64,000 nucleotides of DNA from Siniperca chuatsi (Eukaryota; Chordata; Actinopteri; Centrarchiformes; Sinipercidae): assembly GCF_020085105.1 (NCBI RefSeq), contig NC_058052.1, positions 17,586,733 through 17,650,732 on the forward strand, in the 5' to 3' direction. Made by a program: the position numbers and the translations under genes. The notes beneath the pieces were generated by a model that made no database searches, was not told where the DNA came from, and saw only the letters and a program-made list of their open reading frames with translations. Every line of letters begins with the position of its first letter. The first letter of the stretch is position 1. This document shows positions 26,801 through 29,800 of the stretch, piece by piece.

Positions 26801-29800
26801 AAGTCAGTAAAGGAATTAAATATTTTGCTCAGTGATTCACAGCAGTCGAGTGTTAATGTCCCTCTAGCTGTTTCAGTCACCCAATCATGAGTATTTACAT
26901 ATCACTGCATGTTTGCTCGGAGATTAAGTGGTATGACTTTGTTGTAAAATGGTGTGTATGCAAACAGTGGCAGAATGACACAGACGCAAAGCAGTCTGAC
27001 TCAGAATATGCTTGATTTTTAAAAGTGTGTTGAAACCAAAACTTTATCAACATCAATACTGATTTAGCTTTCCACATCCAAAAAAGGTAGTTAAAGTGTT
27101 TGTGAGACCATGGGTAAAATTTCTAAGCACATAATGACATTTATTTTTAGTGTCCATGTCCATATTTTCTCAACATGTTAACGCTCAAACCTGTTTGAGT
27201 TGCACAATGCTTTTCTTGTTTCTGAATTTGTCCATTTTCAGCTGTCGGTTAGAAAAAGCACCTTCTTCCTTTTTTATTTTTGTGGCTTTTTCACTCTAAC
27301 ACCTGACTGTGCTGAACATCCATGGCTGGACTCTTTCCTCCTAACTCTCCCATTACAAAAAAAAAGTCCATATTCTGAGTTTGACGTCTTAATACATGTA
27401 CACACACATCGCCCTTTTCTAGCCTCCAGGTTTTAGCTCACTTTACCACAGTGATAAATAGGAAAAGCTAGTTTCATAATTCTGTAACAAATAACATCAC
27501 ACATTTGTTTGTTAAATTCACCAAAGAAAACTGATGTTTTGTGGTCGTTTTATGATCGTGAGCAATCTCAAGTTCCCCCTTTCACTCCAGGTCCCATGTA
27601 AAATGTTTAAGATGCACACCTTCACTTTAAAGCCACGTACTGTTTGTTGTTTTGTTTTTTAGAAAAACTATGTAGAAGCAGATATCTGTAAATATGTGTG
27701 TGGAGCTCATGTGTTTGTGCCTGCTGTGCTGTCAAGCCCCTGACAGACCAGCCAGGTCCTGTTTGTGACAATCTCCTTCTTTCTCTCTTAGGGGACAGTA
27801 CCGTTAAGAACAGGAGCGAGCCAACCCCTCAGGGCTTCAAGAAAGGGAATTGGCATTGGGGTAAATGAGCCTTTCATCCATTATTATTTTTTCATTCATT
27901 TCCTTTTTTATATGGCCCCAGAGGTCCACCAGGCTGGCGTAGTCTGAGTTAGACATGTTGCCTAACAGGATAGGACTAGTTTACAGGCATATGATGTCAT
28001 CTCCAACACCACACCCTCCCTGACAGGAAGAAGGAAGGGTTAAAATTCCTCTATATACAACGCGTTGTGCTGGTCCAAGACTGTCAGAATAGAGTCCTAT
28101 GTCTCTGGTTCTGGGTCTCTTTGGGTGTTAGATTTTGTGGTCTGTTAGTTTCCCTCTCTGCTCCTTAATTTTAATGTTTTGCACTTATTTATTGGGGGGA
28201 GGTAGTGGTGTGCTGAGCTGTCAAACTCATGTAATAATACTGGTATCCTGTCTTGCTCTCTTGATCTCACTCATTCTTCTTCTTGTGTTTTCTGTCTCTT
28301 CCCCCTGACAAATCTCATAATCTTGCCCCCCCTGTGCAACGTCAACACTTTTTGCAGATCCCCAGTTTGTGGTGTACCAGCTAAAAGTGAAGATTCACAC
28401 GTCGAACCCTGCTCACACGCGGCGTGAGGACAAGCACATGTTTTTTGAATTCCCCCAGCCGCTGCCAGTTTGTGGAGACATCAAAGTGGAGTTCTTCCAT
28501 AAACAGAATAAGATGATGAAGAAGGTTAGTTGTGTTGGGGTGCGTGTGTTCAGGGGCTTTCATTGTAGTTTCATTTGCTTGGTCCTTGTCCCTGAGCTCA
28601 TTTCAGCTGTTGATTGTCATGACGTCTGCTAGGCCAAAGAACAATCAGTAGGCTTTGACAAGCATTTTCTTACTTAGCTGGGTGTCAACAATTTTTTTTA
28701 TTTATTTATTTTTAAAGAATAAGACATGGCATTCTATATATCTATAGATAGATAGATATACTTTTTTTTTTTGTCAATAAAACCCATGAAAGACCAAAAC
28801 CAAAAATGTTACTTTTTGTGTTACCAAAGCCTGATAATAGCTTATTCCTCTGTGCCATAGACCTCTTTTGTTGTCCAAAAACTATTACAAACGCATCATT
28901 TAGCCACACCGTCACCACTGGTTGACAAGTTACTTCATTACCATGAACATGGACACTGTAGTTTCTTTTTAGTCCATCCTGCTGCTATAAATACTCACTA
29001 ACGCAACAAATGTATATTAATCCATGGCTGAAAACAGTCCCCCAGAAAATTCAACTATATATAACTATATTAACTCCTGTTTGAGTAATGTTTGCTTAAA
29101 ATTACTGAGCCTATTTATTTTAATGAAACTGTATTTGTAGTAGTTTTTAAAGATTTACGTCTTTGAGTAGAAACAACTGGGCTTTGGGCCGAGTGCACAG
29201 ACTGGGTCGGAAAGTATTAAGAGACAGGCACAGTGTTGGTTTGTTTGTTTTCTAATGGAGAGTTATTGACGACAAGAAAAACATAGAATAATGCAAACCT
29301 TACGTAACTGGACTGAGTCCATAAACAAATGTTATCAAAAGTTTCTTTTGAATACTCTATTTCGCCCAATTTCTCATTACATCTCTCTCATCACCTCTGC
29401 CCTCCAGGACAAAATGTTCCACTTCTGGGTGAACACCTTCTTCATCCCTGGACCAGAGGAGAGCGGCGACAAGATAGAGAACGGGGCGGTGAACAATGCA
29501 GAGAGCCAGCAGGGGGTACCGGCACTGGGCCAGGGCCAGCCGCAGAGCGCCGAGTGCAGGGACAGCTGCAGGGAAAGCGGCAGGGAAAGCGACAGGGACA
29601 GGGACTACCTCATCCTGACGCTCACTAAAAACGACTTGGACAAGGCCAACAAAGACAAAGCTAACCGCTACTTCTCACCAAACTTCAAGGTAAAGATTTA
29701 ATTTAAATATTAGCTGGGTAAATGGATGGATTATATGGATTGATAAGTATGTTATTGAATAAGCTTAATTCCTTTGCTTTCAAATCAGTCTGTGTTTTTA

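What the first reader, a model, noticed from the sequence alone, without database searches (positions are those of the whole stretch)
27792..27860. Extra 69-nt in-frame exon candidate in pten, inside the C2 domain
The segment is open, has acceptor and donor consensus, is a multiple of three, and matches the phase of both neighbouring exons (1/1), so it could be included or skipped without a frameshift. It would add 23 basic/polar residues (RDST...GNWHW) right after FSGGTC. Human PTEN has none. The eight other exon sizes equal human, so this is a fish-specific addition to an otherwise conserved structure and could tune membrane docking or add phosphorylation sites. It may be the known longer ptena form; I cannot verify that.
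Basis: partly seen in the sequence, partly recalled or inferred. Interest (0 to 1): 0.7.

Follow-up and report, generated by a model that had tools for sequence, protein, structure and literature searches.

The report
Extra in-frame exon in fish pten
A fish copy of the tumour-suppressor gene PTEN appears to carry a genuine optional 69-base exon that would lengthen, by 23 amino acids, one of the loops with which the protein touches the cell membrane; it may be a known kind of long fish splice form, and its effect is untested.

Summary
In a complete nine-exon pten gene (20888-30061, +), intron 6 contains 27792-27860: open, 69 nt, phase 1/1, strong acceptor, moderate donor. It is the best-scoring in-frame exon candidate of the eight pten introns (18.1; next intron's best 13.6). 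Two splice sites both this good arose in 9 of 4000 shuffles, an equal summed score in 108 of 4000; none of 582 other open 69-mers of the intron is as coding-like. I take it as a real exon (about 0.9), giving Pten forms of 422 and 445 residues. The 23 residues fall between human C211 and N212. Published HDX-MS puts that point in CBR1 (peptide 201-215), a C2 loop protected on membranes (PMC4700475). The insert is net +3 and ends Trp-His-Trp, so altered membrane docking is the best mechanism, but only inferred. 'Other exon sizes equal human' is inexact: exon 8 is 57 nt longer. [quoted passage not shown] whether it is this cassette could not be checked. Without transcripts or other fish genomes, use, regulation and fish-specificity stay open.

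The parts
20888..20966 (+). pten coding exon 1 (79 nt, from ATG)
   Evidence: protein aligned to human PTEN chains
24688..24772 (+). pten exon 2 (85 nt)
24924..24968 (+). pten exon 3 (45 nt)
25069..25112 (+). pten exon 4 (44 nt)
25350..25588 (+). pten exon 5 (239 nt), phosphatase signature HCKAGKGR
25904..26045 (+). pten exon 6 (142 nt), ends FSGGTC + first base of codon 212
27768..27791 (+). polypyrimidine-rich 3' splice region of the cassette (acceptor score 12.7, highest of the pten exons scored)
27792..27860 (+). 69-nt cassette exon, 23 residues [23 protein letters not shown]
27861..27866 (+). cassette donor gtaaat (A at +5; score 5.5, below those of exons 2-8 but above that of exon 1, 0.8)
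28358..28524 (+). pten exon 7 (167 nt), begins (N/D)PQFVV
29408..29689 (+). pten exon 8 (282 nt; human 225 recalled), net 19-residue insertion
29876..30061 (+). pten exon 9 (186 nt with stop), C-tail and ITKV end
   Evidence: sequence; the script ran one base too far (30062)

Best explanation
27792-27860 is a genuine coding cassette exon of a fish pten gene, optional without frameshift. Skipping gives a 422-residue Pten with the human-like C211-N212 join; inclusion gives a 445-residue Pten whose C2-domain CBR1 loop is longer by 23 residues (net +3, two Trp near its end) and whose N212 becomes D. Shown: the anatomy, frame, splice-site strength, coding-like composition, and the exact position of the insertion relative to human PTEN. 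From literature: that position lies in the CBR1 peptide protected on membrane binding. Inferred: that the exon is spliced in, that inclusion is regulated, and that the basic/aromatic loop strengthens or re-tunes docking on anionic membranes, with Ser/Thr (notably the EPTP threonine) able to modulate it. Odds: genuine exon lengthening CBR1 about 0.9, alternative rather than constitutive use about 0.7, altered membrane docking about 0.4. The confidence given is for the core: a genuine, frame-neutral exon that lengthens CBR1.
For: Complete intact gene around it. Top candidate of the eight pten introns, with a summed splice score (18.1) in the range of the gene's other internal exons 2-8 (15.0-19.0). 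9 of 4000 shuffles match both sites. Codon log-odds above those of 582 of 582 other open intron 69-mers and of its own two other frames. Insert lands exactly between human C211 and N212 in the PDB alignments. CBR1 peptide 201-215 is protected on vesicles, 8% reduction in HDX (PMC4700475 passage). [quoted passage not shown]
Against: No transcript evidence and no orthologue to show purifying selection. The summed splice score alone is reached in 108 of 4000 shuffles (2.7%). The donor scores below those of exons 2-8. The splice matrices were typed from recall and the codon model was trained on a small set (this gene's other exons and one ORF). Inclusion lowers the Pfam PTEN_C2 score from 138.5 to 123 bits, so it could weaken the fold instead. 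No clear splicing-regulator motif enrichment near the exon, so nothing in the sequence shows regulated use. The 8% protection of CBR1 is smaller than that of the N-terminus (42%) or the arginine loop (39%).
Confidence: 0.8

Rival explanations
1. It is a real exon, included constitutively in this gene copy, so that the only Pten made from it is the 445-residue form.
For: Its summed splice score equals or exceeds six of the seven other internal exons 2-8, and exons 3 and 4 are even shorter. A weak donor need not mean skipping: the donor of exon 1 scores lower still (0.8).
Against: Skipping leaves a human-like protein; a long splicing variant, implying a short one, is named for zebrafish Ptenb.
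Confidence: 0.22
2. It is a chance cryptic exon: splice-like signals in an intron, rarely or never used.
For: 2.7% of shuffles contain a candidate with an equal summed score; no RNA evidence.
Against: Both site scores together (9 of 4000), coding-like codons (0 of 582 others equal) and high GC (0.9% of other intron 69-mers as high) make coincidence unlikely.
Confidence: 0.08
3. The exon is used, but its product is a neutral or slightly destabilising disordered loop, or serves protein binding or phosphorylation rather than membrane docking.
For: Rich in polar and charged residues with S, T, P; lowers the PTEN_C2 profile score by 15.5 bits; exon 8 of the same gene also carries a low-complexity insertion, in a region left out of the 1d5r chain.
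Against: It lies in a membrane-facing loop, and its charge and Trp content fit an interface.
Confidence: 0.4

Closest known systems
[quoted passage not shown] figure-legend passages seen)
   Same: A fish Pten with a named long splice form.
   Different: The passages do not say where the extra residues lie. 422 would equal 399+23, but it is also the length of the SHORT form here, so the length does not identify it. This gene's long form is 445.
Human PTEN (7jvx, 1d5r chains)
   Same: Near-identical phosphatase and C2 sequence, conserved KMxKKDK of CBR3 and C-tail phosphosite region; same exon layout (human sizes recalled).
   Different: No residues between C211 and N212; exon 8 shorter by 57 nt.
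PTEN-L (N-terminally extended PTEN)
   Same: A PTEN isoform whose added segment changes membrane binding (PMC4700475, passages).
   Different: N-terminal and made by an alternative start (recalled), not a C2 cassette; not encodable in contiguous frame here, since a stop lies 17 codons upstream of the ATG.
Cryptic human PTEN exons N1-N8 (PMC10758127; section 3.3 read)
   Same: Extra exons inside PTEN introns.
   Different: Positions given in that section only for N1-N3 (between exons 1-2, 2-3, 3-4); positions of N4-N8 not seen.

Membership tests
PTEN (gene family) | Phosphatase signature HCxxGxxR | tested here: met
   HCKAGKGR in exon 5
PTEN (gene family) | PTEN C2 domain | tested here: met
   PF10409 138.5 bits without, 123 bits with the cassette, cut-off 27.1
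PTEN (gene family) | C-tail phosphosite cluster and C-terminal TKV | tested here: met
   [15 protein letters not shown] and ITKV
In-frame cassette exon | Length multiple of three, symmetric phase, no stop, AG and GT borders | tested here: met
   69 nt, phase 1/1
In-frame cassette exon | Both inclusion and skipping seen in transcripts | not testable with these tools
   No RNA data
In-frame cassette exon | Conservation of frame and splice sites in related species | tested here: inconclusive
   No vertebrate collection on hand; viral contigs and genome contigs gave no relative; the window's own genome could not be searched (genome search did not complete)
Zebrafish Pten long splice form | Extra residues at the same place | not testable with these tools
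   Croushore 2005 and Faucherre 2008 are not held
C2 CBR1 membrane-contact loop | Insertion point inside the membrane-protected peptide 201-215 | tested here: met
   Alignment plus passage of PMC4700475
C2 CBR1 membrane-contact loop | The long form binds membranes differently | not testable with these tools
   Needs protein

The most novel reading that the evidence does not exclude
This fish, and perhaps teleosts at large, makes by alternative splicing two Pten enzymes from one gene that differ only in a membrane-contact loop: a human-like form and a form with a basic, Trp-bearing CBR1 extension that acts as a phospho-regulated extra membrane anchor, giving tissue-specific control of PIP3 removal that mammals lack.
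Probability: 0.2. Interest if true: 0.6.

Novelty: new member of a known kind. Interest (0 to 1): 0.38.

Why it matters
PTEN dose and membrane residence limit PI3K signalling (general knowledge). A natural, frame-neutral exon that edits one membrane loop would be a ready-made experiment on how CBR1 contributes to docking, and would mean that fish pten rescue work should state which splice form is used.

Tried and rejected
Literature. Searches for the peptide GNWHW (0 papers), for fish pten splice forms and for the C2 loop by name (0 papers) showed nothing on this exon in the listings, some of them capped (20 of 26 listed: 20 of 223: 15 of 57), or in the passages I opened. I saw passages only, by term, of PMC4854392, PMC4743836, PMC10393154, PMC7686559, PMC4161299, PMC10720463, PMC4700475, PMC6298786, PMC3060341 and PMC3136494, and passages plus section 3.3 of PMC10758127. 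The two founding zebrafish pten papers are not held. So I do not claim the exon is absent from print.

Searches. A PDB search with a short peptide found nothing, but that query was badly built: fragments printed in the finding strung together, with the middle of the exon missing; the full exon went to the PDB inside the 445-residue query. Conservation: viral contigs (1 pattern match, no relative), genome contigs (15 pattern matches, no relative), plasmids (none). These collections are not of vertebrates, so the misses say nothing. Rfam over 25904-28524: 0 matches at gathering threshold. Splicing-factor motif counts near the exon: no clear excess. Paralogue (ptena or ptenb): ORFs that look like MINPP1 and PAPSS2 upstream and CH25H downstream (names from recall) did not decide it. 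Structure prediction was not run, because the tool admits only proteins read letter for letter from the DNA, and the spliced protein is not one.

Full report
Observation. The window holds a complete pten gene on the + strand. Nine exons with consensus borders (20888-30061) join to a 422-residue protein. With the cassette added, the protein aligns along its length with human PTEN in the PDB, and both forms match Pfam PTEN_C2. Between exons 6 and 7 lies 27792-27860, bordered by tctccttctttctctcttag and gtaaat. Adding it gives 445 residues.

Is it more than chance? I scored splice sites with simple matrices typed from recall and listed every AG..GT stretch of 30-200 nt in the intron that keeps phase and frame. 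Of 66 candidates this one ranks first, at 18.1; the second and third, at 10.2 and 8.7, share its donor and use upstream acceptors. Over the eight pten introns, with lengths to 250 nt and the right phase for each, 258 candidates were counted and the best in any other intron scores 13.6 (intron 1). The other internal exons 2-8 sum to 15.0-19.0. Dinucleotide shuffles of the intron gave a candidate with an equal sum in 108 of 4000 and one equal at both sites in 9 of 4000 (a first run of 300 gave 2% and 0). None of 22 control stretches (11 regions, one of them pten intron 1, on both strands; not screened for exons of other genes) had an equal. Separately, its codons look coding: log-odds 0.38 per codon against a maximum of 0.30 among 582 other open 69-mers of the intron, and 0.13 and -0.05 for its own other two frames; 0.9% of 2107 other intron 69-mers are as GC-rich. 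That model was trained on this gene's other exons plus the CH25H-like ORF, a small set. Together I put a genuine exon at about 0.9.

Where does it land? The PDB alignments place the 23 residues exactly between C211 and N212, and the junction codon changes N212 to D. Masson and colleagues (PMC4700475, passages seen) report that on membrane binding the C2 domain shows reduced exchange in peptide 201-215, which they call CBR1 (8%), 258-273 in CBR3 (11%) and 316-330 with the C-alpha-2 loop (11%); the N-terminus (42%) and arginine loop (39%) change far more; in PTEN-L, CBR1 and CBR3 do not engage membranes. So the cassette would lengthen one of the C2 loops that meets the membrane. The insert [23 protein letters not shown] has net charge +3 and ends in Trp-His-Trp. 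This makes altered docking the best single mechanism, but it is inference: nothing was folded or measured, and the Pfam C2 score falls by 15.5 bits on inclusion, which would also fit a disruptive loop.

Alternative or constitutive? Its acceptor is the highest-scoring of the gene (12.7); its donor (5.5) scores below those of exons 2-8 but above that of exon 1 (0.8). That allows regulation but does not prove it. No Rbfox-type motif lies within 300 nt on either side, and PTB- and Nova-like motifs are not clearly enriched (motif names recalled).

What is known? [quoted passage not shown] I did not see what the extra residues are; the founding papers are not held. 422 minus 23 is 399, which is suggestive only, and 422 is also the length of the short form here. 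I therefore treat the cassette as probably belonging to a known kind of fish Pten long form, without proof. A study of human PTEN reports eight cryptic exons (PMC10758127, section 3.3 read); only N1-N3 are placed in that section.

Limits. No vertebrate genome or RNA collection is on hand. The collections searched returned no relatives, as expected for viruses, bacteria and plasmids. The window's own genome could not be searched: nine identical requests did not complete. Fish-specificity, conservation and use are hence open.

Verdict. A real observation, well described apart from one detail, with a reasonable interpretation that is now more precise. Moderately interesting, and likely (my expectation, not checked) part of an already annotated isoform.

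Noticed in passing
window 29556-29605: Exon 8 carries a tandem array (12-nt unit GCAGGGAAAGCG, 3.6 copies, 29556-29598) coding for part of the Cys/Arg/Glu/Ser/Asp-rich region that makes exon 8 longer than in human; the corresponding human region is missing from the 1d5r chain (PMC4161299 passage: residues 282-312).
   Followed up: partly
window 20834-20888: An in-frame stop 17 codons upstream of the pten ATG excludes a contiguous PTEN-L-type N-terminal extension, unless a 5' intron intervenes.
   Followed up: partly
window 27747 and 27756: Two weaker in-frame acceptors upstream of the cassette would extend it to 114 or 105 nt, still open.
   Followed up: no
window 1617-2060, 14964-15647, 58841-59725 (-): ORFs that look like MINPP1, PAPSS2 and CH25H (names from recall), a gene set resembling the human PTEN region.
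   Followed up: no
window about 30300-30470: Long TA-type simple repeat a few hundred bases downstream of the pten stop codon, inferred from ORF translations; perhaps in the 3' UTR.
   Followed up: no
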